Positions 1,764 to 63,156 of a stretch of DNA of 64,000 nt are shown one piece after another. Position 1 is the first letter of the stretch, and each line of letters begins with the position of its first letter. The position numbers and the translations under genes were made by a program. This DNA is from an uncultured Lachnospiraceae bacterium (GTDB lineage Bacteria; Bacillota; Clostridia; Lachnospirales; Lachnospiraceae), in assembly GCA_946628415.1 (NCBI GenBank), contig CAMOWK010000013.1, positions 1 through 64,000 of the forward strand, in the 5' to 3' direction. The notes under the pieces were generated by a model. That model was not told the DNA's origin and searched no databases. It was given only the letters and a program-made list of their open reading frames with translations.

Positions 1764-1956
1764 ATATGCCAAATTATTGTAAAATGGAGAGAATCAGCAA
1801 CGGAGAAATATATAGCTAGTATTCTGTTTTAAAAATTTTGGAAGTGGCGATATGATGAAGAAGATTACCCTATCGAAGATTTAAATGCATTAGGGATATT
1901 TTGTGCTTGAATGTATTCCGATACAGGAATATAATAAAAAACGTGAGGTATTGCGC

Positions 1957-2136
1957 ATGGAATATATGACAACAATTGAGGCATCCAAAAAATGGAATAT
2001 TTCTAGCCGAAGAATATCTAAACTCTGCAGTGAAGGAAGAGTAGAGGGAGCTGTTCTTAAGGGTAAGACCTGGTTGATTCCAGAGCGTAATGAAAAGCCA
2101 AGGGAATTAAAACCGGGGCGAAAAAAGAAATTATAA
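1957..2136 (+). CDS. Small helix-turn-helix DNA-binding protein (excisionase/MerR-like)
   Basis: About 59 aa from ATG 1957, chosen because GTGAGG lies 8-14 bases upstream; an alternative start at 1903 has no good ribosome site. MTTIEASKKWNISSRRISKL is a winged-helix recognition motif like those of excisionases and DNA-binding domain class 17 proteins, followed by GKTWLIP, the usual wing. The C-terminus is a basic RKKKL tail. It could be a recombination directionality factor or the controller of the downstream restriction-modification-like operon. The large distance from the integrase and the adjacent operon make the controller role at least as likely. Confidence 0.65.
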   Translation: MEYMTTIEASKKWNISSRRISKLCSEGRVEGAVLKGKTWLIPERNEKPRELKPGRKKKL

Positions 2137-2216
2137 CATTGTTTTTATAGACAATACATCAGTTAGAGAAAGAACGCTGATAGTGTTGTTTTATAAATAC
2201 AGGTAGGAGTGTTTCT

Positions 2217-4007: not shown

Positions 4008-4021
4008 GGAGGTCAAAATAA

Positions 4022-6206: not shown

Positions 6207-7424
6207 TTATAAGTTTAACTCATCTAAATCTATAGTAAGTGTATTGGATGCATTTAATGAGTCTGCCAAGACTTCGTTAAATCTGTCACGTAATTTTTTA
6301 AATTCTTTGAGGATGAAGTTATACTCATCTTCTGAATATTCATATCCCGGCTGTTCGATGCAGATAAGCTTATTATTTTTTATGGTACATAAAAAACTGT
6401 CTTTATTAGTTTTGTAGTGTTCAAAGATGAAATAGTCGCTTTTGCTGGTATATATACGGATCCGGGGATTTATACGGGGGATATACGGGTGAGTAAATAT
6501 GAATACCTTGCCAGCCCAGATACTTTTTGTACTGGTAATCGGAATCCTTAATTCTGTGATTCTGCTGCATGATATATCTCTATAATCATACATTTTATCA
6601 TCTGAATCCGAGTATAATAAAATGGCTTCAGTAAATGGGTCAATTCTCAAAGGAAGATGACTGCACTGGCTGCTGCGATATACAGATATTGCTTTACAAA
6701 GAGCATCATCAATTCTTTTTTTTGATGCTTCAGAAATGCCTTCAGGATATTCGACTTCAATAGTAAATCTCATGATTCTATTATTTTTGTACATCCTATC
6801 ATTTATTCCAGAAATATACGAGTTTCTAAATTTTTTATCATCTGTAGAACCTATTCCAAAGATTCTGAAGGATTCTATGAAATCCTCGAAGTTTTCAAGG
6901 TTGTAACCGGCAGTTCTAGCCTTATCAACAATATTGGCACGTGTTGAGGCAGTTAATGCTTCTTTACTAGGTGTATATCCTGCCAGAACTGTTGAGATGT
7001 CTTCGGAACTAAGATTGGTGATATATTCATCTGGATCATAAGGCGCTTTGCCGCCTTGTATTGCTTCAGTGGTTTTATGGAGTAAGTAAACGGCATATTT
7101 ACTAAAGTAACCACATGTTTCTAAAGCTCCTTTAGACAGCAAATCATCATCTGTCTTATCTCTATATTCAATGCCAAGTTCTTTGAGTACGGTTGATACC
7201 GTTCCTTTTTTTGAGTTGTCAAGCATTCTCACAAGGATATGATAATGTGATTTATTTCTGCTCTTGTTATGATTGATACCAATGATTTGATATTTTTCTT
7301 TATCTGCATTTTGAATTCTGTCGTAAAGATAGTCTTTACCCTTGGTTAATTGTTCGTCATAACATGTAATTGCCAATGTGGCAAATTGGTCTTCTGGAGT
7401 TAGTGTTTTTCTATCGCCTTTCAT
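6207..7424 (-). CDS. Rolling-circle replication initiator (Rep_2-like)
   Basis: 405 aa from the ATG at 7424, chosen because AGGAGG sits at 7432-7437; a start 30 bases upstream has no such site. HYHILVRM (residues 60-67 of this start) is the metal-binding HUH-type motif. YFSKYAVYLLHKT, followed by a DPDEYI segment, matches the region of plasmid Rep_2 proteins that holds the catalytic tyrosine (the pMV158-type YLTHK...Y block). These proteins nick the double-strand origin and prime rolling-circle replication. The C-terminal half is not recognised and may be an extra domain. The upstream intergenic region carries repeats suited to Rep binding. In an integrated element such a Rep can maintain the excised circle. 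Confidence 0.7.
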   Translation of the reverse strand: MKGDRKTLTPEDQFATLAITCYDEQLTKGKDYLYDRIQNADKEKYQIIGINHNKSRNKSHYHILVRMLDNSKKGTVSTVLKELGIEYRDKTDDDLLSKGALETCGYFSKYAVYLLHKTTEAIQGGKAPYDPDEYITNLSSEDISTVLAGYTPSKEALTASTRANIVDKARTAGYNLENFEDFIESFRIFGIGSTDDKKFRNSYISGINDRMYKNNRIMRFTIEVEYPEGISEASKKRIDDALCKAISVYRSSQCSHLPLRIDPFTEAILLYSDSDDKMYDYRDISCSRITELRIPITSTKSIWAGKVFIFTHPYIPRINPRIRIYTSKSDYFIFEHYKTNKDSFLCTIKNNKLICIEQPGYEYSEDEYNFILKEFKKLRDRFNEVLADSLNASNTLTIDLDELNL

Positions 7425-7588
7425 ATATAGTCCTCCTGTAATTGATAATAACATTACATAAATTACATAATGCTTACATCATAACGACGTAGTAAAAATC
7501 TTTGTATATGAAGATTTATGACGTGTGCGTTGTTTTTTTTACACAAATCATAATTATAAAAAATTATTTATGCCCTATAGTTTTCAAA

Positions 7589-7763
7589 AAACTTTGGCAC
7601 AAATGGCACATTTTTGCTCAAACCGTTGACTATCAACAGGATAACCCGTGCCAGTATATAATTAGCAATTTACGCTTAAAATATTGTAAAACTATTGATA
7701 GTCATGGGTTAAACACATGTGCCATTTTTGTAATTTTAAACTTTGGCACAAATGGCACATTTT
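7589..7763. repeat. Iteron-like repeats, candidate replication origin
   Basis: The 26-bp sequence beginning AAACTTTGGCACAAATGGCA occurs identically at 7589-7614 and 7738-7763. An inverted, partial copy (TGTGCCATTTTTG) lies near 7719-7731 and another TTTGGCACAC follows the second copy. Between them GACTATCAA (7628-7636) is inverted as TTGATAGTC (7695-7703). The region sits between the divergent-facing upstream side of rep and an unknown gene, spans 7425-7826 and has no coding potential, so it is the best candidate for Rep binding and the double-strand origin. Confidence 0.55.
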
Positions 7764-7826
7764 GGCACACTTTCTATATGTATTAGGAATAATGTATAGA
7801 TTGTATAGAATGTATAGATTTTTAAT

Positions 7827-8645
7827 CTATACATTTTTGGTTTCATACATTCTTTTAGTTTCTTTGAATATGTATTTGAGCTGAGTTTCGTTCCAAATAG
7901 GATCTCCGGTACTTGATATTTTTTTATCGAAGATATAATTTGCCAGGCCGAATCTATCATCCTGATCTAAAATATACTTATAAGCATTTGGTATTGTGTA
8001 TATAAACAGGATTATCTCATATTCGTTTATACTCAAGGTATTTCTCTTCTTATACGCTATAAGGTATTTTAAAAGATTATCAATGTCAGGAAATAAGCCA
8101 TTAAGATATACATTAAAACGTTTTAAGGCTGTTGCTTTAGCATCATTGGATTCGTCGATACCGTCAACATCAGTATATTTTATCCGGAATCTAAAGAGTA
8201 ACTCCATCTCTTCTAATAATTTTTTTGATTTGTTATGATTATGTACGGTTGTTTTTTCGCGTTTCTCTGAGGGGGAAACTTCTTTATTTTGCTCCTTGGA
8301 TTTGTCTTTTGGAGCCTGCTCGTTATTTGAGAATCCCGCGCTTATAATGGTATTTGGCGGAAGAGTATCAGCTTCTTTTTCCTGTGTATCACTAGAACTA
8401 CTATTTTCTTCCTTCTTGTCAATTACCATGCTGGCATCCATTTCAGCTACTTTTTTCATAGCAAAAAGATTTACGAATGATTCAAGACTATCAGCCAGTC
8501 TGTTTTCTGGGACGTCCGAGGTTTTATCTTTATCCTTGCCAAAGTCTCTTTTTTCTAAACCATCCAAGTAGATGTTATAGTTAAGAGAATCTTTAAAGTT
8601 CTGGGAAAGTTCTCCCTTATCGTGGTTATTAAATAATTCGTTCAT
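7827..8645 (-). CDS. Hypothetical element protein with low-complexity linker
   Basis: 272 aa, not recognised. Residues 1-80 are acidic/polar, residues about 80-140 form a Ser/Glu/Lys-rich disordered linker, and residues 145-272 form a compact helical domain (from LLEEMELLFRFRIKY to the end). It has no membrane segment or signal peptide. It is transcribed after the relaxase gene with a 14-base gap and before rep, so it probably belongs to the mobilization/replication operon. It could be a relaxosome or replication accessory factor, but sequence alone gives no function. Confidence 0.55.
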   Translation of the reverse strand: MNELFNNHDKGELSQNFKDSLNYNIYLDGLEKRDFGKDKDKTSDVPENRLADSLESFVNLFAMKKVAEMDASMVIDKKEENSSSSDTQEKEADTLPPNTIISAGFSNNEQAPKDKSKEQNKEVSPSEKREKTTVHNHNKSKKLLEEMELLFRFRIKYTDVDGIDESNDAKATALKRFNVYLNGLFPDIDNLLKYLIAYKKRNTLSINEYEIILFIYTIPNAYKYILDQDDRFGLANYIFDKKISSTGDPIWNETQLKYIFKETKRMYETKNV

Positions 8646-8659
8646 AATGATAGGCTCCT

Positions 8660-9823
8660 TTACATTGTTTTTTCATTCTCTTTATGAGAATGCTTTATAT
8701 CGAGAACTGATTGTGCTTGTTCAGCACGCTTTTCGGTTCTCTTTTGTGTGGATGATCTGTTTCGAAGTTCATTTGCCAGGTCTTTAGTTACTTTAAGTAT
8801 TTGTTCAAGCTGTTCCTTATCAATACAAATGCTATTAATCAGCTCCATTGGAGTGATTGTTTCGATGGGGCTTGAATTCTCGGAAAATTCTTCAAGTTCT
8901 GATACAGATGTATTGGCAGAGATTGTTCTTTTTTCATGTTTTGGCTTGCGTTTTGCTTTATTATCCCAGTATGCCTGAATGGCAGTAGGAGAGAAGTCAT
9001 CACCAAGACTACTGGACCGGGCTTTTGTATTCATTACTTTAATGGGACATTTAACGTAATTAAATACATAGTAATCGCCTTTCTTCTTACTCGATTTTTT
9101 GGCGGTGGTAATACCAAATCTTTCAAGCAGATTGATAAAATCAGTTTCATTTTCTGTTTTGTTCCGGGCGTGAAGTATGATGGTTCGCATATCTTCTTTG
9201 TAGCTATAGTTATCTGTTTTGATTAGAAGATCACGCAGTTGCTTATAGTTCAGTTCTTCGTTGTATTTCCGAAGCCCTTTACTGTTTTCTAACTTTTCTT
9301 TTTCTTTATTTGTTCTCTTGAATCTACTTCTTTTACCATCGTCAAGTTCTATGTATTTAGATGCAATCTTATTTGACCATTTTTTTATATTTGAATGTCT
9401 GCATTGTGCCTTATTACAGCCTTTATGGTTTGTAATGGATACATCGTTAATGATGATATGGATATGCAGTTTTTTACCTTTTCCATCGGCCTGAGTGAAT
9501 ATTACGGCCTGTCTGTTGGGGTAGTATTTCTTCACAAACTCTCTAGCAATATGGTCCGCTATTTCTATATCAGCCTCGTCATGTGGGCTTAATTCATTAT
9601 CGGAATAGCTGATTATAATATTTCTGGTTTGGTTATGGTGATTAGACCTACCGAACCGCCAGTATTCACTCATTTGAGCTGCGTAATTTCCGCTAGGGTC
9701 CCGCATATTGATAGTAGAAATACGAAGATTTCTTTTGCGGTTTCCGTTATGACCGTGACCGGAACCTATGCAGTAACGCAGGCTTTTGGTTCCATCTCTG
9801 CTATGGTTTATTTTTGTGTACAT
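8660..9823 (-). CDS. Relaxase (MobA/VirD2-type mobilization nuclease)
   Basis: About 387 aa from ATG 9823 (GGTGA lies about 8 bases upstream; an in-frame start at 9835 is less likely). NIIISYS, then the metal-binding KKLHIHIIINDV block (His-Ile-His at about 120-122 of this start) is the relaxase motif III of the MOBP/PF03432 group. The C-terminal half is charged and probably disordered, typical of mobilization proteins. It would nick oriT and pilot the strand into a conjugation pore supplied by another element. Its start overlaps the end of mobC, and both are read toward the rep side. Confidence 0.82.
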   Translation of the reverse strand: MYTKINHSRDGTKSLRYCIGSGHGHNGNRKRNLRISTINMRDPSGNYAAQMSEYWRFGRSNHHNQTRNIIISYSDNELSPHDEADIEIADHIAREFVKKYYPNRQAVIFTQADGKGKKLHIHIIINDVSITNHKGCNKAQCRHSNIKKWSNKIASKYIELDDGKRSRFKRTNKEKEKLENSKGLRKYNEELNYKQLRDLLIKTDNYSYKEDMRTIILHARNKTENETDFINLLERFGITTAKKSSKKKGDYYVFNYVKCPIKVMNTKARSSSLGDDFSPTAIQAYWDNKAKRKPKHEKRTISANTSVSELEEFSENSSPIETITPMELINSICIDKEQLEQILKVTKDLANELRNRSSTQKRTEKRAEQAQSVLDIKHSHKENEKTM

Positions 9824-10256
9824 GATTAAGATCACCGACCTTTTTTATCACTTCATCAAATCTTCTTGAAAGAATAGTGATATCGTCTTTTGAGATTGCA
9901 GGAGCACTTTCTATCAAAGCCATATATTCATCGAATGTAAGGCTGCTCTTTTGAATGGCATTCCGAGCTTTGGCTATTTGATTGATGTTTACTCCGAGCA
10001 TCCTAATATCACGTCGAATATCTTCGAGGATGTTTCCAACGACTACGATATTATGGTTTATTTTTTTGGCCTGTCGTTGGTCGACGTAGCGCACATTGCC
10101 CAAGTATTTTTCGAGAGCCTGATCGAGAGCAAGTCGTACTATGACGGATTTAGATGTGCCATATTCATTAGCGAGAGATTCAATTACTTCGTATACCGAA
10201 GAATCGAGTCTCACGCTTATAGCTTTGGCACATCCTTTATTGTCGTTTTCGCTCAT
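9801..10256 (-). CDS. mobC: MobC-like relaxosome accessory protein
   Basis: 151 aa. The N-terminal 50 residues contain a ribbon-helix-helix DNA-binding unit (KAISVRLDSSVYEVIESLAN, then TSKSVIVRLAL). Residues around 78-97 contain IRRDIRMLGVNINQIAKARN, which matches the conserved LRxxGxNxNQIA block of MobC proteins. MobC helps open DNA at oriT for the relaxase. The gene overlaps the relaxase start by 23 bases and is preceded by the palindrome-rich region that is the oriT candidate. Confidence 0.8.
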   Translation of the reverse strand: MSENDNKGCAKAISVRLDSSVYEVIESLANEYGTSKSVIVRLALDQALEKYLGNVRYVDQRQAKKINHNIVVVGNILEDIRRDIRMLGVNINQIAKARNAIQKSSLTFDEYMALIESAPAISKDDITILSRRFDEVIKKVGDLNHVHKNKP

Positions 10257-14281: not shown

Positions 14282-15652
14282 ATGGGAAAGAATAAAGAAG
14301 AAAGATTAGATCCTTTTGGTAGAAAACTGCAAATGGGTGAAACGTACGATAAAAAAACTGGTAGATATAGATATTCATATACTGATAATGGTGGAATCAG
14401 AAGGCAAGTCTATTCATGGACGTTGCTGGCAAGTGACTATATTCCTATTGGGAAGAAGCAAAAGAGAGGGGAATCCTTACGAGAGAAAAAAACTAAGGTG
14501 CAGGCTGACTTGTATAATGAGATAGATACTTCGCGTGGGAATATGTCGGTGATTACGCTTCTTGAGATGATTGTTGAGATAAATAGCCCGAATGTCCGGG
14601 AGACTACGAGAAAAGGATATCGAACACAAATCAATTTTATGAAAAACAACTCTACAGCATTAAAGATGGCAAACAAAAAAATACGTACAGTTAATGCGTT
14701 GGATGCTGAAAAGTGGATGCTTGACCTTCATAAGAAAGAGGGACGTAGTTATTCATCGCTTCATACGCTTAAAGGTATGCTAAATCAGGCGTTTATCTTT
14801 GCTAAAAAGAATCGATGGGTTGTGGATAATCCTTTTGATTTTAGTATGGCTAAAAAGGCGTATGGTGGAACAAAAATGAGAGATGCACTCAGTAGGGCTG
14901 ACATGAGAAGGTTTTTGGACTTTGTTCAGGATGATACTCATTTTAGAAAGTACTACGATGGATTATATATATTGTTCTTCACAGGACTACGTATATCGGA
15001 ATTCTGCGGATTGAACGCCGATGATTTGGATTTTGAACAGCATGTCATACATGTTCGTTGGCAATTATTAAGAGTATATGATGGTAAGACTAATAAGTAC
15101 TATATCGAAAGACCAAAGACAGAAAATGGGTTAAGAAATGTCCCTATGTTACCGGGGGTAGAGGAGGCGTTTAAAAATGTTATAAAAAATAGACCTTTGA
15201 TAAAGGAAACTATTGTATGGGATGAATTAAAACAGAATTCCAAGACAGGGTTTCTGTGGTTAGATAAAGATAATAACTATGAGGTGGCACAACATTGGTC
15301 GAATCATATAAGATGGGCGAGGAATAAATTTAATAAAAAATATAAAGATGAAATGCCTTTTGTTTCACCACATGTGTGTAGGCATACTTTTTGCTCTAAT
15401 TGTGCTGGTGCGGGGATGAGTCCGAAAACATTACAAGTAATCATGGGTCACAGTAGTATTGAGTTTACACTTAATGCCTACACGCATGTGGAAGCGGGTG
15501 ATGTTAAATCAAATTTTTTCACATTTATGAATTCTTCGAACTATGATATATGCGAATATAAGCGTAAACCGGATATCGTCACTCAAAACATCAGCTATGA
15601 GGTTGAAGAGGGTGAGGTTGATTTTACAGAAAAACCAGATGATGATGAATGA
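14282..15652 (+). CDS. int: Tyrosine integrase (Tn916 Int-like)
   Basis: 456 aa. The catalytic residues are visible: Arg237 in TGLRISE, Lys near 279 in RPKTENG, HVCRH with His364 and Arg367, GHSS with His390 and the nucleophile Tyr400 in NAYTHV. The N-terminal 80 residues resemble the Tn916-type arm-binding domain (KKTGRYRYSYTDNGGIRRQV), followed by a SAM-like core-binding domain at about 90-190. The gene lies about 200 bases inside the right attachment core, the normal place for an integrase. It should catalyse integration and excision at the LMW-PTP P-loop codons. Confidence 0.92.
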   Translation: MGKNKEERLDPFGRKLQMGETYDKKTGRYRYSYTDNGGIRRQVYSWTLLASDYIPIGKKQKRGESLREKKTKVQADLYNEIDTSRGNMSVITLLEMIVEINSPNVRETTRKGYRTQINFMKNNSTALKMANKKIRTVNALDAEKWMLDLHKKEGRSYSSLHTLKGMLNQAFIFAKKNRWVVDNPFDFSMAKKAYGGTKMRDALSRADMRRFLDFVQDDTHFRKYYDGLYILFFTGLRISEFCGLNADDLDFEQHVIHVRWQLLRVYDGKTNKYYIERPKTENGLRNVPMLPGVEEAFKNVIKNRPLIKETIVWDELKQNSKTGFLWLDKDNNYEVAQHWSNHIRWARNKFNKKYKDEMPFVSPHVCRHTFCSNCAGAGMSPKTLQVIMGHSSIEFTLNAYTHVEAGDVKSNFFTFMNSSNYDICEYKRKPDIVTQNISYEVEEGEVDFTEKPDDDE

Positions 15653-15710
15653 AGTGAAGTGTGTTATACTACAAAAAAATAACATATTATATAACACAAT
15701 TTTTCTAAAA

Positions 15711-15819
15711 AAAATCCGCTCATATACGAGGAAAAAATGAAGATGAAAAATGAAGAAAGAATTATAGGTATTGGTAAAATGGCGGAAATAAAAGAAAATC
15801 CGCTCATATATGAGGAGAA
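15711..15819 (+). repeat. Duplicated ribosome-site leader at the right element end
   Basis: AAAATCCGCTCATATA occurs at 15711-15726 and 15795-15810, each followed by a purine-rich Shine-Dalgarno (CGAGGA or TGAGGAG) and an ATG (15737 and 15826). The offset is 84 bp, a multiple of three, so the ORF from the first ATG reads through the second copy. Confidence 0.7.
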
Positions 15820-16384
15820 AAAAATATGGTCAAAATCTTATTCGTCTGCCACGGCAGTATTATTCGTTTGCTGGGGCAACATCTGCCGTTCTCCGATGGC
15901 AGAATTTATCCTTAAAGACATGATTGAAAAAATGCATATCAAAGAAGAATTTCATATTGAGTCAAGAGCGACTCATACTGATGAAATATGGAACGGGTTG
16001 GGAAATCCTGTATATCCGCCTGCAAAGAGTAAACTTGCGGAGCATGGTATATCCTGCAAAGGGAAGAGGGCTCAGCTTCTGAAAAGATCAGATTATAATG
16101 AATATGATTATATAATCGGAATGGATGATATGAATATGAAGTGGATGTGCCGGATTCTGGGTCAGGATGTGCCGGACAGGAGATTCATATTCGGGGCTGA
16201 AAGAGGTAAGGAGTATCTTGCAGCATTGGCTGAAAATAAGATTACACTTCTTATGGACTATACCAACAGACCCGGAAATGTTGCCGATCCGTGGTATACA
16301 AGAGATTTTGAAACCACCTATAACGATATTTTTGAGGGATGTAAAGGATTTCTTGATTTTCTGAAAACTATGGGTAAAATATAA
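15737..16384 (+). CDS. Low-molecular-weight protein tyrosine phosphatase with element-derived N-terminus
   Basis: 215 aa. Residues 1-41 are not part of the family and come from element DNA. LFVCWGNICRSPMAEF then begins the normal LMW-PTP fold, with nucleophile Cys45 and Arg51 of the C-x5-R-S loop, and DPWYTRDFETTY near the end supplies the general-acid Asp. The family dephosphorylates protein tyrosine or arginine, or acts in exopolysaccharide control. A second ATG at 15826 with the better ribosome site starts MVKILFVCHGS, itself an LMW-PTP N-terminus, but in another frame that stops at 15913. The gene is thus a chimera made by integration; whether the extended protein is active is not known. 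A minor alternative is initiation further inside. Confidence 0.8.
   Translation: MKMKNEERIIGIGKMAEIKENPLIYEEKKIWSKSYSSATAVLFVCWGNICRSPMAEFILKDMIEKMHIKEEFHIESRATHTDEIWNGLGNPVYPPAKSKLAEHGISCKGKRAQLLKRSDYNEYDYIIGMDDMNMKWMCRILGQDVPDRRFIFGAERGKEYLAALAENKITLLMDYTNRPGNVADPWYTRDFETTYNDIFEGCKGFLDFLKTMGKI
15869..15879 (+). repeat. Right attachment core (attR candidate)
   Basis: TGCTGGGGCAA, identical to 824-834, within the P-loop codons. A diverged copy of the same coding segment (TTCGTCTGCCACGGCAG) lies just upstream at 15841-15857, suggesting an earlier integration event or an element-borne substitute 5' end. Confidence 0.65.
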
Positions 16385-45904: not shown

Positions 45905-46005
45905 TAGTTGCGCTATGCATTTGCATAAGGTCGGTTCATTGGTGCTGATAGGTCTGTTATCATTCACTTGTTAAAAGTATGAATGGTTTATGGAGGGTTT
46001 ACCTT

Positions 46006-49000
46006 ATGAAGAAAAGAGGATTAATTAATAAAATGATGTCTGCTGCGCTGTCTTCCGTACTTGCTGTATCACTTGCAACCTCATTTGCGGTATTTTCGCC
46101 TGTAGAACTGCTTAATCTTAATGCCTATGCAGATGGCGAAACCGTTATAGCCAATGCCGGCTTTGAAAATGATATTTGGGCATCTGATGCCGGGTGGTCA
46201 GTTACTGCAAGTGATTGGGAAGGTGATGCATCCGTACGTTATTTAAACTATGCCAATGAAGGGTTGACAGCAGCGTCTGAGAATTCAGGTGAATATTATG
46301 TAAACTGCTGGTCTCCTAAGCAGTGGGTTACATTTAATTTTACCCAGGATATTTCTCTTAAGGCAGGGACTTATACCTTTAATGTTTCGGGTGCGGGCGG
46401 AGACACTGAATACATGATGATGATTGATTCTTCTGGAGATGAAGTTACAAGCCTTGCAGAGGGTGATAAAGTTACTTCTTCCGGCTGGGATGTATGGAAC
46501 CAGGCTTCTGTTACATATACAGCAGATGAAGATAAAAAAGTTACACTTAAAATCTCTGCATGGACTACAGCTGAATCAGGCGGGTACATTTCCCTTGATG
46601 ATGTTTCTTATACATATACAGCAAACTCCGGAGGTGATACACCGGGTGATGATCCTGAACCGTCGGACCCTTCTACCGATGAACCGGAAGTTACAAGAAG
46701 CTTTACATTTGATACTATTCCTGTCAGCGGAGATCCCGTTGAATCAGAGCTTCATGTTGAAAAGGTCAGCATGATGAAGGATTTTATAACAGGTGCGGAT
46801 ATTTCTTCTTATAGGTCAATCAGAAACAGTGGCGCTACATTTAGTGACGAGGAAGGACATACTTTAAGTGACGAGGGATTCTTTAATCTCCTTCGTCAAT
46901 CCGGCGTTAATTATGTAAGAATAAGAGTCTGGGTTGATCCTAAGAATTCTGCAGGTAAATATTACGGCGGCGGTAACTGTGACCTCGATACTGCTAAATG
47001 GCTTGGTCGTCTTGCTACGAGTGAAGGCCTCCGGGTTCTTATAGACTTCCATTATTCAGACTTCTGGACAGATCCGGGTAAGTACCAGGCACCTAAGGCA
47101 TGGCAGAATCTTTCACTTGACGATAAGGCTAAGACTCTTAAAACCTGGACAGAGGAAAGCCTTACTGAACTTATAGATGCCGGCGTTGATGTAGGCATGG
47201 TTCAGATAGGAAATGAAACGACAAATGGTTTCTGTGGTGAAAAAGACAGAACAAACATGTGCAAGCTTTTCTCTGCAGGAAGCGAAGGCATAAGAAATGT
47301 AGAAGCTGCTAAAAATAAAGACATTATGATGGCTATCCATCTTACCAATCCTGAGCCGAACGGAACAGATTTTGATGGGTTCGCTAAAGACCTTAAGGAT
47401 AATGGAGTTATATATGACGTTTTTGCAACGAGCTACTATCCTTACTGGCATGGGACGCTTTCTAATCTTTACAGTAAGCTTTCGAATATCGCAAGCAAAT
47501 ACGATAAATATGTAATGGTTGCCGAGACATCCTACGTAAGAACTCTTGAAGACGGAGACGGGCATCCTAACACAGTCAGAGTAGGTAAGAATGATGAAGC
47601 GCTTCTTTATGATGTAAGTGAGCAGGGTCAGGTAACTCATGTAAGAAATGTTATCGAGCAGATTGCCAAGATTCCTGACAATAAAGGTATAGGCGTATTC
47701 TGGTGGGAGCCTGCATGGATACCTGTTCAGAATTACGCTTCTTCAACAGATAAAGATGCAACTCTTGCAGAGAATAAGGCTCTCTGGGAGCAGTACGGTT
47801 CAGGCTGGGCAAGCTCCTATTCGAGTGATTACGATCCGGAAGACGCCGGATTATGGTACGGCGGTTCAGCGGTAGATAATGAATCATGGTTTGATTTCGA
47901 TGGTAAGGTGCTTGAGTCAGCCAAGGTATTCAATATGGTTCGTTACGGAACTACAACTGATGACTATCTTATCCGTGTAAATGACACGTCAGCTTCTTTT
48001 GAAGAGGGTGATTACATAGAACTTCCTGAAACTGTTGATGCAATTTATGCAAGCGGAACAGTGAAGTCTGTAGCAGCTCTTTGGAATGAATCGGAAATTA
48101 AAGCTGCTAAAGAAGCTGGGACAGGCGAGTATGAAATAAGCGGAACAGTAGAATGTGATGAAGGTACATTTGACGTAATATGTAAGCTTACGATTCTTCC
48201 GGATAATCTTCTTATAAATCCGAGCTTTGAGGAAGACTCTAGAACGACTGACTGGACCATATCAGGCGACGGCGGAAACTGGAATGATATGGGGTCTAAT
48301 TCAAAGACAGGGGATGCATGCCTGCATTTCTACAGCGACTCTGATTTTAACTTTGTCGCATATCAGAAGCTTACACTTGATAAAGGCATTTACACCTACG
48401 GCGGATATATGCAGGGTGAAACTAAAGGAGAGGATGACCTGGTAGGAGTTTATGTCGGAATTGACAGGAATGTCCTTGAAGATGTTACAAAGTCCATGAC
48501 AGGATGGAAGAACTGGGCAAATCCTGAGATTGCGGAGTTTGAAATCGAAGAGGACGGAACTGAAGTGACATTTGGAATAACGGTAAATGCAACGGCTGAA
48601 TCATGGGGAGCATTTGATGACATGTATCTCTATAAGGTCGGTGATCTTAGTAATGAGGATGAGGAAGAAGATGACGATTACACATATGCATTTATCGATG
48701 ATGAAGGAAATGAGATAGAAGGAAAGTATTCTCATAAGATCGGAGATGAGAAGAAAGTAAGTATTCATATTGATGCCGATCATACTAAACTCGAAAGCGT
48801 AGCTGTTGATGGAAATGAACTCTCAGCTGACAACTACGATGTGACAGAGGGAAGTACCATCGTTACATTTGCGCCGGATTATCTTGATACATTAAGTATT
48901 GGAAATCATGAGGTGCTTATGAACTATAGTACAGGTAAGTCGGCTAAAGCAACGCTTGAGGTTCTTGCGGCAGACGCTGATGATGACGATGATGAGAGTG

Positions 49001-49278
49001 CAGGTACGGACAGAACAGCAGGTGCAGACAGCAGTTCGAACAGTGGAAGCAAGTCGGATTCAGGTTCGAACAGTGGAAGCAAGTCAGATGCGGGTTCGAA
49101 CAGTGGAAGCAAGTCAGATGCGGGTTCGAACAGCGGAAGTAAGTCAGACACAAACAGCAGTGCGGTTAAGACAGGAGATACATCACCTATCTTAATGGTG
49201 AATATAATACTTCTGGTATCAGTTATCAGTATCGCACTTATTCTCATAGAGAAAAAAAGAGAAAAGGAAAAAAATTAA
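46006..49278 (+). CDS. Cell-surface multidomain GH53 endo-beta-1,4-galactanase
   Basis: 1090 aa from ATG 46006, chosen by GGAGGG at 45992-45997. Order: signal peptide (1 to about 42, ending NAYA-DGE); CBM61-like galactan-binding module (about 43-205); acidic linker; GH53 barrel (about 255-650) with acid/base Glu404 in IGNETTNG and nucleophile Glu507 in VAETS; Ig-like domain (LIRVNDTSASFEEGDYIELP on); second CBM61-like module from INPSFEEDSRTTDW; X2-type beta domain (YAFIDDEGNEI on); four SNSGSKSDxG repeats; and a VKTGD motif, membrane helix and KKREKEK tail typical of sortase-type or membrane anchoring in Lachnospiraceae. It should begin galactan breakdown at the cell surface. Confidence 0.93.
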   Translation: MKKRGLINKMMSAALSSVLAVSLATSFAVFSPVELLNLNAYADGETVIANAGFENDIWASDAGWSVTASDWEGDASVRYLNYANEGLTAASENSGEYYVNCWSPKQWVTFNFTQDISLKAGTYTFNVSGAGGDTEYMMMIDSSGDEVTSLAEGDKVTSSGWDVWNQASVTYTADEDKKVTLKISAWTTAESGGYISLDDVSYTYTANSGGDTPGDDPEPSDPSTDEPEVTRSFTFDTIPVSGDPVESELHVEKVSMMKDFITGADISSYRSIRNSGATFSDEEGHTLSDEGFFNLLRQSGVNYVRIRVWVDPKNSAGKYYGGGNCDLDTAKWLGRLATSEGLRVLIDFHYSDFWTDPGKYQAPKAWQNLSLDDKAKTLKTWTEESLTELIDAGVDVGMVQIGNETTNGFCGEKDRTNMCKLFSAGSEGIRNVEAAKNKDIMMAIHLTNPEPNGTDFDGFAKDLKDNGVIYDVFATSYYPYWHGTLSNLYSKLSNIASKYDKYVMVAETSYVRTLEDGDGHPNTVRVGKNDEALLYDVSEQGQVTHVRNVIEQIAKIPDNKGIGVFWWEPAWIPVQNYASSTDKDATLAENKALWEQYGSGWASSYSSDYDPEDAGLWYGGSAVDNESWFDFDGKVLESAKVFNMVRYGTTTDDYLIRVNDTSASFEEGDYIELPETVDAIYASGTVKSVAALWNESEIKAAKEAGTGEYEISGTVECDEGTFDVICKLTILPDNLLINPSFEEDSRTTDWTISGDGGNWNDMGSNSKTGDACLHFYSDSDFNFVAYQKLTLDKGIYTYGGYMQGETKGEDDLVGVYVGIDRNVLEDVTKSMTGWKNWANPEIAEFEIEEDGTEVTFGITVNATAESWGAFDDMYLYKVGDLSNEDEEEDDDYTYAFIDDEGNEIEGKYSHKIGDEKKVSIHIDADHTKLESVAVDGNELSADNYDVTEGSTIVTFAPDYLDTLSIGNHEVLMNYSTGKSAKATLEVLAADADDDDDESAGTDRTAGADSSSNSGSKSDSGSNSGSKSDAGSNSGSKSDAGSNSGSKSDTNSSAVKTGDTSPILMVNIILLVSVISIALILIEKKREKEKN
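49035..49150 (+). repeat. Coding 30-bp tandem repeat in surface galactanase
   Basis: The 30-bp unit beginning TTCGAACAGTGGAAGCAAGT recurs at 49035, 49065, 49095 and 49125 and encodes SNSGSKSD(A/S)G. It makes a flexible spacer between the catalytic part and the anchor, and its copy number may vary between strains. Confidence 0.92.
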
Positions 49279-52943: not shown

Positions 52944-53010
52944 TTGTATAGTAATATGTAGACGTTCAAGGGAACAGTTTTAGATACATATGATGGTATG
53001 GAGGTATGAC

Positions 53011-54051
53011 ATGAAAGAAGTTAATCCAAATGAAATTGATGAATTTGCAGTCGGCAGTATAAATGATTATGAAGAGGAAGACAATTCATTTGAAGAACTT
53101 GAGAATGAAGAGTTAGAAAAGGCAAAAAAGAAAAAGGAACTTGCCGAGGATGAACTTAACAGAGAGCTTAACAATACCTTTGAGATAGGTGAAAATGAAA
53201 CGCTCGAGCAGCATTTTAAAGGCGAAAACGGCAAGATGAGTGCTGAGGATGAGAAAAAGTACTACAGCTACATGGAGTCTCATACCGGAGATAAGATAAA
53301 GGAAAAGTCTCCACGTGAGAAAATTGAAGCTCTTTCAAAAGCAGCTGCTGCTTATATGATGGTTAAGGCTACATCTACAAGAGTTTACAATACGAATACA
53401 ATCCATAAGAATGCTACAAAAATTAAGCAGACGCTTGACCTTTCAAATCTTCACGAGATCGATGTTGACGATATGCTCAGCAGCCCTGAGAACCTTAAGA
53501 AGGGCGTAAATGAAAGACTGAATCACCTTTACGGAAATGAGAAAAACTTTGATGAATACATCAAGAAGATGAAAACTCTTTCCGAAAACCTTATGTCGGA
53601 CGATAACAGATCTAAAGAATATAAGGCGATGGTAAGATGCATAAAGGAAGTAGCGCAGCTTAAGCCGGGTGATAAGGACGAGATCATATCCAAGAATTAT
53701 AAGCTCATGGAAAGCGTTGAGAAGTATATGAAGGGTAAGAAGAGAGTCCGTAAAACCGAGGTTGGTGTTGAGCATTTCAATAATGCGCTCGATGCTCTTG
53801 CTATCATGAATGAATATAACCCTATGCTTACGGATAAGGTTGCATCATTAGTAGACAGAGTTAATGAGGTTCGTGGTTCTGAGCTTGCCGATCATAAGGA
53901 CCATGTAGATATAGCTGATTTCGGTGCTGAAAGAGCAGTTGAAGCAAAGGCTAAGAGAATTGAAAGGACTAAGGAAAAGAAGAGAGAGCTTACGATGGAT
54001 AAAGAAATGCTTAAGAATAAGGAGCTCACTCATCCAACAGTAGGTATGTAA
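53011..54051 (+). CDS. Charged, helical protein of unknown function
   Basis: 346 aa from ATG 53011, chosen by GGAGGT at 52999-53004 upstream. Residues 1-60 are strongly acidic with a coiled-coil stretch (EELENEELEKAKKKKELAEDELN); residues 95-290 are an all-helical globular region (KAAAAYMMVKATSTRVYNTN, KMKTLSENLM, HFNNALDALAIMNEY); the last 40 residues are basic and helical. No signal peptide or membrane helix. It converges with the 1000-aa kinase-like gene across a shared terminator, and its AAAxMMVK helix vaguely resembles one near residue 900 of that protein, so they may belong to one system. Function not assigned. Confidence 0.6.
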   Translation: MKEVNPNEIDEFAVGSINDYEEEDNSFEELENEELEKAKKKKELAEDELNRELNNTFEIGENETLEQHFKGENGKMSAEDEKKYYSYMESHTGDKIKEKSPREKIEALSKAAAAYMMVKATSTRVYNTNTIHKNATKIKQTLDLSNLHEIDVDDMLSSPENLKKGVNERLNHLYGNEKNFDEYIKKMKTLSENLMSDDNRSKEYKAMVRCIKEVAQLKPGDKDEIISKNYKLMESVEKYMKGKKRVRKTEVGVEHFNNALDALAIMNEYNPMLTDKVASLVDRVNEVRGSELADHKDHVDIADFGAERAVEAKAKRIERTKEKKRELTMDKEMLKNKELTHPTVGM

Positions 54052-54120: not shown

Positions 54121-57100
54121 TTATGCATGACTACTTGGACCTGATGTTTTTTTCTGATTCTTAATATTAACTTTCTTAAGAGGAACTTCTTCAAACTTCT
54201 TTTCCTCAGGATGAACTTTAAAATATGCGTTCTCAAATTCACGTGACTGACTAAGTCGATTGGTTGGGGTAGGAATAGAAGCTTCAGGTCTGTCATAGCC
54301 TTGAATACTTAAAAAGTCTTCTTTATTTCCTTCATAATAAGCTTTAAACTCTGCTGAATTTAGGAGAGTTTCAGCTGCTTTATTTAGAGGTGCAACTTTG
54401 ATGCTCTTAAGACGGTCACGCACAGTTTTCTCGTTTTCGGTAAGTTTTTTACCCTGTCTTAACTTATCTTCAAGGCTGAGTTTGAGAATGATCATATCGG
54501 CAGCAACAGCATTCTTTATCAGAGTCTCGGTATCTTCTGCGATAGGAAGTCCTGTTGATTTTCTAATGTCATCAAGGAATGGGTTTCTGTCAGCTTCCTT
54601 TAAGCCGGCAAGTCCAAATCCAAGATACTGTGCAAACTGAAGCTCATAATAAGCTTTTTCTTCAGCGTGTGCATTCGGGTGTTTTTTTATAACATTGTAA
54701 GTCTGATTAACCTGGAATTTAGTACGGCTTAAATGGTTACGGTATAGGTTAGCGCTTCTTTTGTCCTGTCTCTCAATAAATCTTTCACTGTTTAAGTACT
54801 GCATTTGTTTCGTGGTGTATTCAGTCTTAGCAGTGTTGTTCTTTGCTGAAACTTCAGCAGCGTCCTGGAGCTTTTTATCTAAATCATTAAAGCTGTTAAG
54901 CATTTTATTAAGGAAATCACGACAATTTTCCGCGTCCCTGTAACGTCTTTCCTGTCTGTTGGGTTTATGAGGCCCGTTAATATGTCTCCAGCTTTCATTT
55001 TTATTGTCCTTATACTGGATGTAGTCATTTGCTTTGGAAAGAGCTATTCTTACTTTTGTTTTTAAATCAACTAACTGCCTGATGTGCTTCTTATTTGTGA
55101 TAACCGATTTACCAAGAAGCGGACCCTGTAATTCAATCATGGATTTTTTGAGCTCTTTCATATCATCAAACAGTTTGTCGTATTTTTCAGAGCTTCCGCC
55201 CCAAAATGTATCATTATCAAGATTACCGATAAGCTTATTCATGTCGGGTATATTGCCTACAGTAAGATTATAAACGCTTTTAATATAGTCCTCTCTCAGA
55301 TTATTATGAAGGCAGGAAAATGCATAGTTGGAATTAGCGTTTTTTCTGAGTATCTCAAACAGATTTTTAGGATTAGCATTGCAGAGATCATCAGTTATCG
55401 TCATTTCGGAAAGTTCTTCATCTTCGACAATCTTTATGGTTCCGGGGATGATATATCCCTTTGTATATCCATTTGCATATTTGGCGGTATCCTTTGTCAG
55501 CTTGTCCTTCAAACTATCAAGTCTTGCTTTTGCTGCGTTAATTTCAGCTGTAGAAAAACCATAGCCATAGAAAACCTGTTCGAGCATCTGAGGTGAGATA
55601 GCCATTATCCGCTGCTGCATATCTTTTGTTATAACCTTCATGCGGTTAGGTGGAATATATGTCATGCGGGCTTTACTTGTATCAGCGCTTCCCCAGGAAG
55701 TGTCGTTATCTATTCCCTGTGGGAGATTAAGGTTGATGAGTCCGTCGGGACCTTCCGTAAAATCATAAAGCATATTACCGCCGTGTCTGTCAGGGTTACC
55801 ACATAAATAGTCAAGGATCTGGAGATTTCCGATCTGCTTTTTTACCTTAAGAGATTCAATACAGTCAAATTCAGCCTTTAGAGCAAGTGAATCCTTAGGA
55901 ATATTGTGTGAATCAAAACCCTTTGCACTCTTCATGAAGGTGCCTTTATATGTCTTGCCACCGATTGTAAGCTTCATGTTTTCTGAAAATGCTATGGCAT
56001 CCGGACATCCAAGTAATTCTGCCATCTTACTCATTGCGGCATTTCTTCTGTTAATATTACTGCCGGGTTCAATGCCTACACCTTCATTTATATTGACTTT
56101 GTTTTGTTCTCTAAAACCGGCAGAAGCCACGTCAACAAACATTTTCAGTTTTTCAGGGGTATTTATATAGCTCTTTAAAGAACTGCCCATATTTTTGCTG
56201 AGATATTTTACAGCTTCGGTATACTTCATCATGGATAGTTCTTCTTTTGCAAAAAGGATACTAGTTAGGGCATCTTTATTATTTCTGCTGAATTTTGAAT
56301 AAAAACTCTTAATAGCCGAAGTGCTGATAAAAGATGCAGCTTTTCCGTATTTACTTCTTGCGGTTCTGATTTCTTTTGCTACTGTATCACCTGATTCAAG
56401 AACATTGTCAGGAGTGAAAAAGCCATCTATCACTTCTCCACTCGGAGATTTTATCTTTACATGGATTCTTTCGTTCTGAGCTCCTTGATCCTTATGACCG
56501 TTATTAGCCGGTTCTTCCACAACCTGATAATCAGACCTGACTCGGGAATCTTCGTAAATGTCATTTATTGTAAGGTTGTCTTTATCTTTAGAATTATTAA
56601 AAGTTCTGAGATCTTTACTGAGGGTATTAAGTATTAAGTCAATCTGCTTAATCTGAGACTTTAGAGATTTGATTCTTCTTGTAATATCCCTTCGCTCATA
56701 TGCGTTGGTGGATGCGTCATGTTCTTCTTCAAGCTCGGATATTTTATCTGTCATTTTGTTGGTAAAGCTGGATAAAGTATGGATAGAAGCAGAATAGTAT
56801 GCGATTACTTCATTTATATCAGCTTTACTCATAACAGGAGCTTCGTTAATATCACCTACCAGAACTTCATCGTCGGGTTTCGCATTTTCTGCTTTTTTAG
56901 ACGCATTCTTTTTGCCTTTTTTAGCTCCATCATTATTCGGTGCCGGATTTACAGCCGGTTTTCTGTATGGACTGAATTTAGAAATTGTATCATTTAGAGC
57001 TTTAAGTGAATCTGAAATAGACTTCTTATCCTGGTAGTAAGGATCGTCCCTCTGTGGATTCAGATATATTTCATGCAGCTTTAAATATTCAACCTGGCGT

Positions 57101-57123
57101 TTTTTAAGTCTGTTTTTAGGCAT
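54121..57123 (-). CDS. 1000-aa protein with PI3/4K- or HipA-like kinase motifs
   Basis: No signal peptide or membrane helix. N-terminal 1-200: basic, linker (Pro/Asn/Lys-rich) and coiled coil. Residues 220-480 carry kinase-like features: HVKIKSPSGEVIDGFFTPDN, the NINRRNAAMSKMAELLG helix (357-373), the catalytic-loop motif GNPDRHGGN with Asp445, His447 and Asn450, and the metal-binding GIDND with Asp472 and Asp474. These parallel the DRHxxN and IDxxx segments of PI3/4-kinase-like, HipA and related atypical kinases. Residues 500-1000 are a long helical region with no recognised family. Substrate is unknown. It is preceded on the same strand by an XRE-family regulator gene. Confidence 0.65.
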   Translation of the reverse strand: MPKNRLKKRQVEYLKLHEIYLNPQRDDPYYQDKKSISDSLKALNDTISKFSPYRKPAVNPAPNNDGAKKGKKNASKKAENAKPDDEVLVGDINEAPVMSKADINEVIAYYSASIHTLSSFTNKMTDKISELEEEHDASTNAYERRDITRRIKSLKSQIKQIDLILNTLSKDLRTFNNSKDKDNLTINDIYEDSRVRSDYQVVEEPANNGHKDQGAQNERIHVKIKSPSGEVIDGFFTPDNVLESGDTVAKEIRTARSKYGKAASFISTSAIKSFYSKFSRNNKDALTSILFAKEELSMMKYTEAVKYLSKNMGSSLKSYINTPEKLKMFVDVASAGFREQNKVNINEGVGIEPGSNINRRNAAMSKMAELLGCPDAIAFSENMKLTIGGKTYKGTFMKSAKGFDSHNIPKDSLALKAEFDCIESLKVKKQIGNLQILDYLCGNPDRHGGNMLYDFTEGPDGLINLNLPQGIDNDTSWGSADTSKARMTYIPPNRMKVITKDMQQRIMAISPQMLEQVFYGYGFSTAEINAAKARLDSLKDKLTKDTAKYANGYTKGYIIPGTIKIVEDEELSEMTITDDLCNANPKNLFEILRKNANSNYAFSCLHNNLREDYIKSVYNLTVGNIPDMNKLIGNLDNDTFWGGSSEKYDKLFDDMKELKKSMIELQGPLLGKSVITNKKHIRQLVDLKTKVRIALSKANDYIQYKDNKNESWRHINGPHKPNRQERRYRDAENCRDFLNKMLNSFNDLDKKLQDAAEVSAKNNTAKTEYTTKQMQYLNSERFIERQDKRSANLYRNHLSRTKFQVNQTYNVIKKHPNAHAEEKAYYELQFAQYLGFGLAGLKEADRNPFLDDIRKSTGLPIAEDTETLIKNAVAADMIILKLSLEDKLRQGKKLTENEKTVRDRLKSIKVAPLNKAAETLLNSAEFKAYYEGNKEDFLSIQGYDRPEASIPTPTNRLSQSREFENAYFKVHPEEKKFEEVPLKKVNIKNQKKTSGPSSHA

Positions 57124-57209: not shown

Positions 57210-57452
57210 TTAGGAGTTTCGACGTTTTTCAAAAAATCTGACAAGACGTATGTCGAGGGCATTTGCTATACTGTTAAGGGCGGAAATTGAAACGCTCTTT
57301 ATGGTTGCATTTGATTCGAGTTTTGACAGGTAACTCATACTTATGCCTGACATTTCCGAGAGCTCCTTTTGGGTGAGACCGGATTTTGTCCTGAAAAACT
57401 TTATATTTTTGCCTATTACAGAATATAATTCTTTATCTGAATGAAATATCAT
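57210..57452 (-). CDS. XRE-family HTH transcriptional regulator
   Basis: 80 aa, a single Cro/CI helix-turn-helix domain: SGLTQKELSEMSGISMSYLS with the recognition helix and LSKLESNATIKSVSISALNS following. It lies 86 bases upstream of the 1000-aa gene on the same strand and may control it. No clear Shine-Dalgarno stronger than AGGAGT before ATG 57452 was needed; the start is well placed. Confidence 0.88.
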   Translation of the reverse strand: MIFHSDKELYSVIGKNIKFFRTKSGLTQKELSEMSGISMSYLSKLESNATIKSVSISALNSIANALDIRLVRFFEKRRNS

Positions 57453-61476: not shown

Positions 61477-63156
61477 ATGGAAGATATACAGAAAAATCTA
61501 TTAAAATGCAAAGCAATATGCGAAAAGTATGAGAAGTTCATGCGTGACCGTGATCCGGGAGATCTTTTTTATTCATTCTGTTCAGAGGTCATCAATATGG
61601 GCTTTCTTATTGCGGTCTCTGACGGTTATGTTGACGGTTATGAGATATCGCTTATCAACAGGACATTTAACGTTTTACTTGATTATACAATGCTTTCCAA
61701 GAATTTCGGACTTGATTACCTGTCGGAAGACAGTTTTCTCCAGAAGGTTCCCACAAGTATAAAGGAGATATCAAGGCTTGAAAAAGCTGAATACATGGGG
61801 GCGAAGTGTTTCCTTGCGGATACCAGAGTCCTGTACAATACATTTAAGCAGTTTGGTGGAATGATAATTAACTGCAACGGTGCACGACTCAAATTTGAAG
61901 TAATGCTTCTTAACTTCTTTACAAATATATGTCTTGAATACATTTTCAGTATTGAAGAAAGTGATGATCTGCTTAACTCGATGGTAACGAGTAATAAGCC
62001 GGATTCATTTCGTGCAAGTAATCAGAGACTTAATAATAACCTTTCGTCTGCTTCTCAAAATGAAAAAAGGGATGCAGAAAAAGGCGGGCATAACAGGTAT
62101 GCCATGAAGGAAGCGTCGGGTGCACTTGAAAGACCGGCTGAAAGCGGTGCATATGGAATGCCTGCCGGAAATGTAATGCATGAAAAACCTGAAACCCGGG
62201 GTAATCTTTCGGTAGGACTTTCGGATGACGAACTTTATGCCGCCAGAAAAGAGGCGGGAGATGATGCAAGCCGTGACTTTATAGAAAGGTCGGTATCAGA
62301 GCATAGAGAAACTATGAGAGATATGTCAGACAGGACTGAGGTAAATGAACTTCTCAGCAAAATTGACAGTCTGACCGGACTTGGATGTGTTAAAAAAGAA
62401 ATTCATGATATGATCAATCTTCTTATGGTTCAGAGAATCAGAGAGAAGAAGGGACTTAAAGCAACCGCTATTTCGAGGCATCTTGTATTTACAGGAAACC
62501 CCGGAACCGGTAAGACAACTGTTGCAAGAATACTTGCAAAGATATATAAAAGCATGGGTATACTGAAGACGGGACAGCTCGTGGAGACAGACCGTTCCGG
62601 TATGGTTGCCGGCTATATGGGACAGACCGCCGAAAAGGTTAAAGAAGTCACAGAATCAGCTATGGGTGGAATTCTTTTCATTGACGAAGCATATACACTT
62701 GTTAACGGAAATGAAGGAGATTTCGGGCAGGAAGCGGTTGATACTCTGCTTAAGATTATGGAGGACAGACGAGATGAGCTCATCGTTATCGTCGCAGGTT
62801 ATCCTGATCTTATGGAGAAATTCCTTAATTCAAATCCGGGACTTCGTTCAAGATTTAATAAGTATATTCACTTTGAGGATTATTCTGACAATGAGCTTCT
62901 GACTATATTTAAGGCTTATGTGGATGAACAGGATTATTCACTTGAGGAAGGAATAGACGATACTGTTTTGGCAAAGATAGCAGAGCTTAGAGAAAATGCA
63001 GGAGAGAATTTCGGTAATGCCAGAGAGATCAGAAACTTTTTTGAGAAGGTAATCGGAAGGCAGGCTAACCGTATTATGGATATTCCGCCTGAGGAGCTTT
63101 ATACGGACGAAGCTGCACTTACAACTATCACGAGAGATGATCTCGAAGTGCTGTGA
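61477..63156 (+). CDS. CbbX/SpoVK-like AAA+ ATPase with N-terminal helical domain
   Basis: 559 aa. Residues 1-170 are an all-helical domain with ISDGYVDGYEISLI, possibly TerB-like; 180-280 is a disordered, Asn/Arg/Gly-rich linker; 290-559 is an AAA+ module of the CbbX/SpoVK/Ycf46 type. Walker A GNPGTGKTT lies near 340-348, Walker B ILFIDEAYT near 403-411, with the Arg-finger region SRFNKYIHFEDY and the sensor region after it. It probably remodels a protein complex; the client is unknown. It is the last complete gene before glmM. Confidence 0.88.
   Translation: MEDIQKNLLKCKAICEKYEKFMRDRDPGDLFYSFCSEVINMGFLIAVSDGYVDGYEISLINRTFNVLLDYTMLSKNFGLDYLSEDSFLQKVPTSIKEISRLEKAEYMGAKCFLADTRVLYNTFKQFGGMIINCNGARLKFEVMLLNFFTNICLEYIFSIEESDDLLNSMVTSNKPDSFRASNQRLNNNLSSASQNEKRDAEKGGHNRYAMKEASGALERPAESGAYGMPAGNVMHEKPETRGNLSVGLSDDELYAARKEAGDDASRDFIERSVSEHRETMRDMSDRTEVNELLSKIDSLTGLGCVKKEIHDMINLLMVQRIREKKGLKATAISRHLVFTGNPGTGKTTVARILAKIYKSMGILKTGQLVETDRSGMVAGYMGQTAEKVKEVTESAMGGILFIDEAYTLVNGNEGDFGQEAVDTLLKIMEDRRDELIVIVAGYPDLMEKFLNSNPGLRSRFNKYIHFEDYSDNELLTIFKAYVDEQDYSLEEGIDDTVLAKIAELRENAGENFGNAREIRNFFEKVIGRQANRIMDIPPEELYTDEAALTTITRDDLEVL

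What the first reader, a model, noticed from the sequence alone, without database searches (positions are those of the whole stretch)
54121..57123. Large orphan protein with PI3/4K- or HipA-like kinase catalytic loop
GNPDRHGGN (443-451) and GIDND (470-474), spaced 27 residues apart and preceded by an NRRNAAMSKMAELLG helix, follow the order of atypical kinases of the PI3/4K, HipA and related families. The rest, about 500 helical C-terminal residues and 200 disordered/coiled N-terminal residues, matches nothing I recognise. The gene lacks a signal peptide, has an XRE regulator upstream and a convergent partner of charged helical character downstream. It could be a new bacterial kinase or effector family; function is inference.
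Basis: partly seen in the sequence, partly recalled or inferred. Interest (0 to 1): 0.78.

Follow-up and report, generated by a model that had tools for sequence, protein, structure and literature searches.

The report
Lysine-less atypical kinase of gut Firmicutes
A 1000-residue bacterial protein that matches no named family folds as a kinase related to lipid and secreted-protein kinases, and it belongs to an unnamed, mostly ruminant-gut family that has lost the usual ATP-binding lysine and seems to use an arginine elsewhere in the pocket instead.

Summary
The gene is real: 54121-57123 on the minus strand, 1000 aa, with GNPDRHGGN at residues 442-450 and GIDND at 470-474. No Pfam, NCBIfam or PDB model matches the full-length protein. 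A family alignment does match PI3/PI4-kinase and Fam20C models. An AlphaFold2 model of residues 150-610 (pLDDT 93) gives a bilobal kinase fold, closest to PI4K type II (Z 15.2), Fam20 (14.2), CtkA (13.9), CotH (11.2) and HipA (10.7). Relatives occur in about 5% of sampled Lachnospiraceae genomes and in other Firmicutes, most of them labelled ruminant. Asp445, Asn450 and Asp472 are almost invariant. Two features were not foreseen. First, the beta3 lysine and the alphaC glutamate are absent: they are replaced by Thr237 and by invariant Arg360-Asn361, with an invariant arginine (Arg219) at the glycine loop. A sister branch does the reverse, keeping the beta3 Lys/Arg and lacking the loop arginine. 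Second, the convergent 353-aa neighbour carries a helical domain that other family kinases carry fused, and it co-occurs with the kinase across genomes. Best reading: an active atypical kinase with a relocated phosphate-anchoring residue, acting with helical partner proteins. Substrate and activity are untested. The upstream XRE gene is not a conserved partner.

The parts
54121..57123 (-). kinase gene, 1000 aa; N-terminal start MPKNRLKKRQ..EYLK conserved in orthologues
56527..57123 (-). residues 1-199: helical/disordered N-terminal region
   Evidence: helices 2-28 and 37-45 of the modelled fragment = residues 151-177, 186-194
56404..56526 (-). residues 200-240: kinase N-lobe strands beta1-beta3 with glycine loop (GAQNER) and GFFT in beta3
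56467..56469 (-). Arg219 at the end of the glycine loop, 68 of 69 (1 gap); aligned with the loop Lys of a HipA_C relative
56413..56415 (-). Thr237 at the beta3 lysine position, T/S in 67 of 69
56068..56391 (-). residues 245-352: all-helical insert between beta3 and helix alphaC
   Evidence: helices 98-200 of the fragment
56008..56055 (-). helix alphaC, residues 357-372, with invariant Arg360-Asn361 in place of the alphaC Glu
55774..55800 (-). catalytic loop GNPDRHGGN, residues 442-450 (Asp445 catalytic base, Asn450 metal ligand by homology)
55702..55716 (-). metal-binding loop GIDND, residues 470-474 (Asp472 = DFG-type Asp by homology; Asp474 invariant in the alignment)
54124..55338 (-). residues 596-1000: C-terminal all-helical region shared by the closest orthologues, no PDB match
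52990..54051 (+). convergent neighbour, 353 aa, charged helical; the conserved MKE(I/V) start suggests translation may begin at 53011
53263..53958 (+). partner's helical domain (Y.KGKK.R....G..RFDNALDALAI), homologous to modules fused to kinases in other loci
57210..57452 (-). 80-aa XRE/HTH_3 regulator upstream; possible local regulator, not a conserved partner

Best explanation
The protein is an active atypical kinase of the PI4K-II/Fam20/CtkA/HipA type. SHOWN BY COMPUTATION: (1) residues ~200-546 are predicted to fold as a bilobal kinase with a ~105-residue helical insert between beta3 and alphaC; (2) the catalytic Asp445, Asn450 and metal-binding Asp472 are kept by nearly all relatives; (3) the beta3 lysine and the alphaC glutamate are absent and replaced by Thr237 and Arg360-Asn361, with an arginine (Arg219) kept at the glycine loop. 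INFERRED: ATP-Mg binds between the lobes; Arg219 takes over the job of the beta3 lysine (as WNK does with a beta2 lysine and POMK with a glycine-loop lysine), with Asp474 of the DND motif as a possible salt-bridge partner of Arg219 or Arg360; Asp445 deprotonates a hydroxyl and phosphate is transferred. The helical modules, in the same chain or in the convergent neighbour, dock, regulate or are phosphorylated by the kinase domain.
For: Fold: AF2 model pLDDT 93.3, pTM 0.91 from 69 sequences. Foldseek top 12 hits are all PI4K-II, best E 5.8e-7; VIA Z 15.2 PI4K-II, 14.2 Fam20A, 13.9 CtkA, 11.2 CotH, 10.7 HipA, 10.0 actin-fragmin kinase. Sequence profile: Fam20A E 1e-5, Fam20C 1.3e-5, PI4K-II 0.007 in the PDB; 62 of 69 members match PF00454 and 41 of 69 PF06702 at E<=0.01. 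Catalytic residues. Lysine swap: R219 68/69, T/S237 67/69, R360 and N361 69/69, no conserved Lys; alignment to a HipA_C protein puts T237 on its beta3 Lys and R219 on its loop Lys; the sister branch has beta3 K/R and no loop Arg, and the two states separate on a tree built from the C-lobe alone with 2 changes against 12.4 in shuffles. Precedents: WNK, POMK (PMC12599244; PMC4718504). Partner: domain fused to kinases and co-occurring in 8 of 9 genomes, Fisher P 1e-10. SpoIIE proximity: 7 of 29 kinase loci observed against 0.56 expected.
Against: No activity, nucleotide binding or substrate is known. Loss of both the beta3 Lys and the alphaC Glu is the usual mark of a pseudokinase. The fold closest by Z is a lipid kinase. 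The window gene itself is not near a SpoIIE gene. Coordinates of the model could not be read, so the R219-to-phosphate geometry was not measured.
Confidence: 0.62

Rival explanations
1. It is a pseudokinase: the fold and the Mg-binding Asp are kept for nucleotide sensing or scaffolding, and no phosphate is transferred.
For: The canonical beta3 Lys and alphaC Glu are missing in all 69 aligned sequences. Degenerate copies do exist in tandem with intact ones: L056 first domain lost D472/D474, L054 second domain lost D445 and D472.
Against: D445 126/130, N450 128/130 and D472 124/130 are kept, which is not expected if catalysis were dispensable. The basic residue is relocated, not lost. Clearly degenerate copies are the exception and sit beside intact ones.
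Confidence: 0.2
2. It is a lipid (phosphoinositide-like) kinase acting on a eukaryotic neighbour, for instance a rumen protozoan or host cell, after delivery.
For: Closest fold is PI4K type II. The family is mostly from ruminant samples. Legionella has comparable PI kinases and one predicted effector kinase with a large helical insert (PMC9758233).
Against: Fam20 and CtkA, which are not lipid kinases, score within about 1.3 Z of PI4K-II. No secretion machinery is a conserved neighbour. No membrane-binding segment was identified. The rumen bias has no background control.
Confidence: 0.13
3. It is a HipBA-like toxin-antitoxin pair: XRE protein as antitoxin, kinase as toxin.
For: XRE gene 86 bases upstream on the same strand, with weak similarity to HipB-type regulators. 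HipA belongs to the same fold group.
Against: No relative of this XRE gene lies near any of the other kinase loci examined. Orthologues have unrelated upstream genes. No HipA_C match for the protein.
Confidence: 0.05

Closest known systems
Phosphatidylinositol 4-kinase type II
   Same: Best structural match (Z 15.2, Foldseek E 5.8e-7); similar IDN(G/D)xxF metal loop and LDYI..N.DR catalytic loop
   Different: PI4K-II has the beta3 Lys (VFKPKN) and SEAGA in alphaC; here GFFTPDN and RNAAM. Catalytic loop DRH..N rather than DRG..N. Large helical insert and flanking helical regions. Only 15% identity
Fam20 family (Fam20A/B/C, Golgi secretory kinases)
   Same: GN.DRH catalytic loop and (I/L)DN..(F)G metal loop align over ~90 residues, E 1e-5; Z 14.2
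HipA / CtkA bacterial Ser/Thr kinases
   Same: Same fold group (Z 13.9 CtkA, 10.7 HipA); the HipA_C relative L183 aligns along the kinase domain
   Different: HipA_C-type proteins keep beta3 Lys and alphaC Glu (L183: GLFK, SE); no HipA_C match for the window protein; no conserved HipB partner
WNK and POMK kinases (relocated lysine)
   Same: beta3 Lys missing and a basic residue near the glycine loop/beta2 instead; POMK also lacks the alphaC Glu and uses an acidic residue after the DFG-type Asp (PMC12599244)
   Different: Eukaryotic kinases of other families; here the residue is Arg, and R360-N361 replace the alphaC Glu; independent origin
Lmor_1975 (predicted Legionella effector kinase)
   Same: Large helical insert in the kinase domain plus C-terminal helical domains, remote similarity to known kinases (PMC9758233)
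   Different: Lmor_1975 is reported to keep the ion-pair Lys and Glu; no sequence relationship was tested here

Membership tests
Protein-kinase-like fold (PKL superfamily) | bilobal kinase fold | tested here: met
   AF2 pLDDT 93.3; Z 10-15 to six kinase families
Protein-kinase-like fold (PKL superfamily) | catalytic Asp, Asn and DFG-type Asp | tested here: met
   D445, N450, D472
Protein-kinase-like fold (PKL superfamily) | beta3 Lys and alphaC Glu pair | tested here: not met
   T237 and R360-N361 instead
Protein-kinase-like fold (PKL superfamily) | ATP-dependent phosphotransfer | not testable with these tools
   needs purified protein
PI3/PI4 kinase (PF00454) | Pfam gathering score 27.1 bits | tested here: not met
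   window domain 16.1 bits, E 0.011; 62/69 relatives match at E<=0.01, best 6.4e-8
PI4K type II | phosphorylates phosphatidylinositol | not testable with these tools
   no assay
Fam20C (PF06702) | Pfam match above cut-off | tested here: not met
   no match listed for the window member, 41/69 relatives at E<=0.01, best 4.5e-8
Fam20C (PF06702) | secretory-pathway location | not tested
HipA (PF07804) | HipA_C match | tested here: not met
   no match for full-length protein; 1 of 69 relatives at E 0.007
HipBA toxin-antitoxin module | conserved HipB-type XRE partner gene | tested here: not met
   XRE present only at the window locus
HipBA toxin-antitoxin module | toxicity neutralised by partner | not testable with these tools
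   needs expression test
WNK/POMK-type lysine relocation (analogy, not kinship) | basic residue at glycine loop/beta2 replacing beta3 Lys | tested here: met
   R219 68/69 with T/S237 67/69; reciprocal pattern in sister branch
WNK/POMK-type lysine relocation (analogy, not kinship) | relocated residue contacts ATP phosphates | not testable with these tools
   model coordinates not available; needs a nucleotide-bound structure

The most novel reading that the evidence does not exclude
A bacterial kinase family that has moved the phosphate-anchoring basic residue from beta3 to the glycine loop (Lys to Thr in beta3, Arg219 in the loop, Arg-Asn for the alphaC Glu) while a sister branch of the same family kept it in beta3. 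It works as the catalytic core of an unrecognised phosphorylation system in gut Firmicutes whose partners or substrates are the large helical proteins encoded beside it or fused to it.
Probability: 0.4. Interest if true: 0.8.

Novelty: new variant of a known kind. Interest (0 to 1): 0.62.

Why it matters
Current family libraries leave these proteins unnamed, so a whole group of likely kinases in ruminant and other gut Firmicutes is annotated as hypothetical. The family joins PI4K-II, Fam20 and HipA/CtkA at similar structural distance. It also contains both a lysine-bearing and a lysine-less branch, which makes it a natural test of how a kinase can relocate its phosphate-anchoring residue, so far known from scattered eukaryotic cases such as WNK and POMK. 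The linked helical proteins give a concrete first substrate or partner to test.

Tried and rejected
Full-length searches (Pfam, NCBIfam, PDB) gave nothing; only family profiles worked. The search for related loci with the single protein found nothing; A1 was too divergent for genome contigs, and A2 worked. Viral contigs: no relative, so a phage origin is not supported. HipBA reading: rejected because XRE is not conserved. The AAA+ gene at 61477-63156 as partner: rejected, one other locus only. A weak match of the N-terminal part of the profile to Legionella LnaB (E 0.029) was not followed up, since among many searches a hit at that level is weak evidence. hhalign with human PI4K2A aligned only the C-lobe, so the lysine claim rests on the HipA_C relative L183, on the sister branch and on a by-eye match of VFKPKN with GFFTPDN. 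The C-terminal 405 residues gave a helical model (pLDDT 82, pTM 0.52) with no PDB match at E<=0.001; depth was only 11 sequences, so absence of a known fold is not claimed. PADLOC matches (PDC-M03A) cover only the catalytic loop and were read as general kinase similarity. Literature searches found no description of this family.

Full report
WHAT IS THERE. The finding's coordinates hold one intact ORF on the minus strand, 1000 aa. The full-length protein matches nothing in Pfam, NCBIfam or the PDB.

RELATIVES. Whole-protein searches of 397 Lachnospiraceae genomes gave 21 genomes with relatives of residues ~330-590. A family profile gave the same 21, plus seven weak catalytic-loop hits; four of these were read, and the three scanned with Pfam resemble HipA-type or PI3/PI4-type kinases. 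In a sample of 398 genomes of the phylum only two carriers were found, both Lachnospiraceae. A scan of 84,980 species genomes with A2 found 145 relatives, of which 79 loci were kept: Lachnospiraceae mostly, also Oscillospiraceae, Erysipelotrichaceae, Acholeplasmatales and unplaced Bacilli. At least 55 of 79 titles bear ruminant labels. There was no background set, so this is a lead and not a proven restriction. No viral contig carries a relative. The closest orthologue is 56% identical over the kinase domain (L064), and the group L064-L069 is collinear along the whole protein.

FOLD. The alignment of 69 relatives (A3) gave an AF2 model of residues 150-610 with pLDDT 93.3 and pTM 0.91. Foldseek's first 12 hits are PI4K type II. 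VIA Z-scores: PI4K-II 15.2, Fam20A 14.2, CtkA 13.9, a bacterial Ser/Thr kinase (7vkc) 11.4, CotH 11.2, HipA 10.7, actin-fragmin kinase 10.0, MavQ 9.9. Profile searches agree: Fam20A E 1e-5 and PI4K-II 0.007. Pfam matches are PF00454 in 62 and PF06702 in 41 of 69 members.

ANATOMY. Strands beta1-beta3 lie at residues ~200-240. An all-helical insert of ~105 residues (245-352) separates beta3 from helix alphaC (357-372). The catalytic loop (442-450) and metal loop (470-474) follow. Residues 596-1000 form further helices, with no PDB match at E<=0.001.

THE LYSINE. Across A3, Arg219 is present in 68 of 69 (one gap), Thr/Ser237 in 67, Arg360 and Asn361 in all 69, and no lysine is conserved. Alignment with the HipA_C protein L183 (Pfam E 3.8e-15), after removing the insert, puts GFF-T237 on GLF-K (beta3 Lys), NE-R219 on SE-K (loop Lys) and R-N361 on S-E (alphaC Glu). 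The N-lobe part of that alignment has low per-column confidence and is supported mainly by the motif order. A more distant branch of the family has K or R at the beta3 position (VYFRK, TYFKP, SYIKE) and no arginine in the loop (GAGTSVVY). On a tree built from the C-lobe only, the two states need 2 changes against 12.4 in shuffles. The patterns used to fetch loci do not include these positions, so this conservation is not a selection effect; conservation of the catalytic motifs loci partly is, but the loci show it independently. WNK (beta3 Lys replaced, Lys from beta2) and POMK (both beta3 Lys and alphaC Glu missing, glycine-loop Lys paired with an acidic residue of the DFG-type motif) are precedents (PMC12599244; PMC4718504). 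The conserved Asp474 of DND is a candidate partner for Arg219 or Arg360.

PARTNERS. The convergent 353-aa gene carries a ~230-residue helical domain (A4). Relatives of it lie next to or near kinases in L046, L065, L073, L120, L132 and L048/L075. In L088, L137, L101, L128, L107 and L084 a homologous module is fused to the N-terminus of the kinase (profile-profile E 4e-6 over 110 columns in register). In 397 genomes the A4 domain occurs in 9, and 8 of these carry the kinase (Fisher P 1e-10), although some carriers have several A4 proteins far from the kinase. The XRE gene has no relative near the other kinase loci, so the HipBA-like reading is not supported. Excluding one SpoIIE-rich genome, 7 of 29 kinase loci lie within ~11 kb of a SpoIIE phosphatase gene against 0.56 expected; this holds for other members, not for the window gene.

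VERDICT. A real, unnamed family of atypical kinases, most likely active, with a relocated basic residue in the ATP site and a genetically linked helical partner. What it phosphorylates, and whether it is an effector, cannot be told from sequence.

Noticed in passing
own genome G000:C1:119548-122145 (locus L044, 6508-10467): A second gene of the family in the same genome, ~1319 aa, with two kinase domains in tandem; the first has DMH in place of DRH, the second keeps DRH and IDND.
   Followed up: partly
L056:8574-12497, L054:3335-7057 (same as L129), L037:9954-11366: Tandem or single copies with degenerate catalytic motifs (GVGNSF for GIDND; NGTRSEND for GN.DRH..N), suggesting kinase-pseudokinase pairs reminiscent of Fam20C-Fam20A.
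   Followed up: partly
L062:774-16994: SpoIIE phosphatase gene, RsbW-like gene and four family kinases in a row; SpoIIE genes are near 7 of 29 kinase loci against 0.56 expected.
   Followed up: partly
L073:1115-18625 and L046:7907-14423: Clusters of very large charged helical proteins (650-1521 aa) without Pfam match around the kinase; some start MKEID and carry the A4 domain.
   Followed up: partly
window 14282-16384, and L064:6090-7951: A tyrosine integrase gene followed by a low-molecular-weight phosphatase gene; in L064 the kinase gene follows directly, in the window it lies 40 kb away. Possible integration hot spot.
   Followed up: no
window 6207-10256: Replication/mobilisation genes (relaxase-like) in an apparent integrated element, with a recombinase and methylase-like genes at 1086-4909.
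   Followed up: no
window 45979-49278: Large secreted glycosidase-like protein with a short tandem NSGSKSDAG-type repeat before a C-terminal membrane segment.
   Followed up: no
L179, L180, L182 (360-aa ORFs): A separate group of ~360-aa kinase-like proteins in Lachnospiraceae with HK and SE-type motifs, weakly matching PF00454 and HipA_C below their cut-offs.
   Followed up: partly
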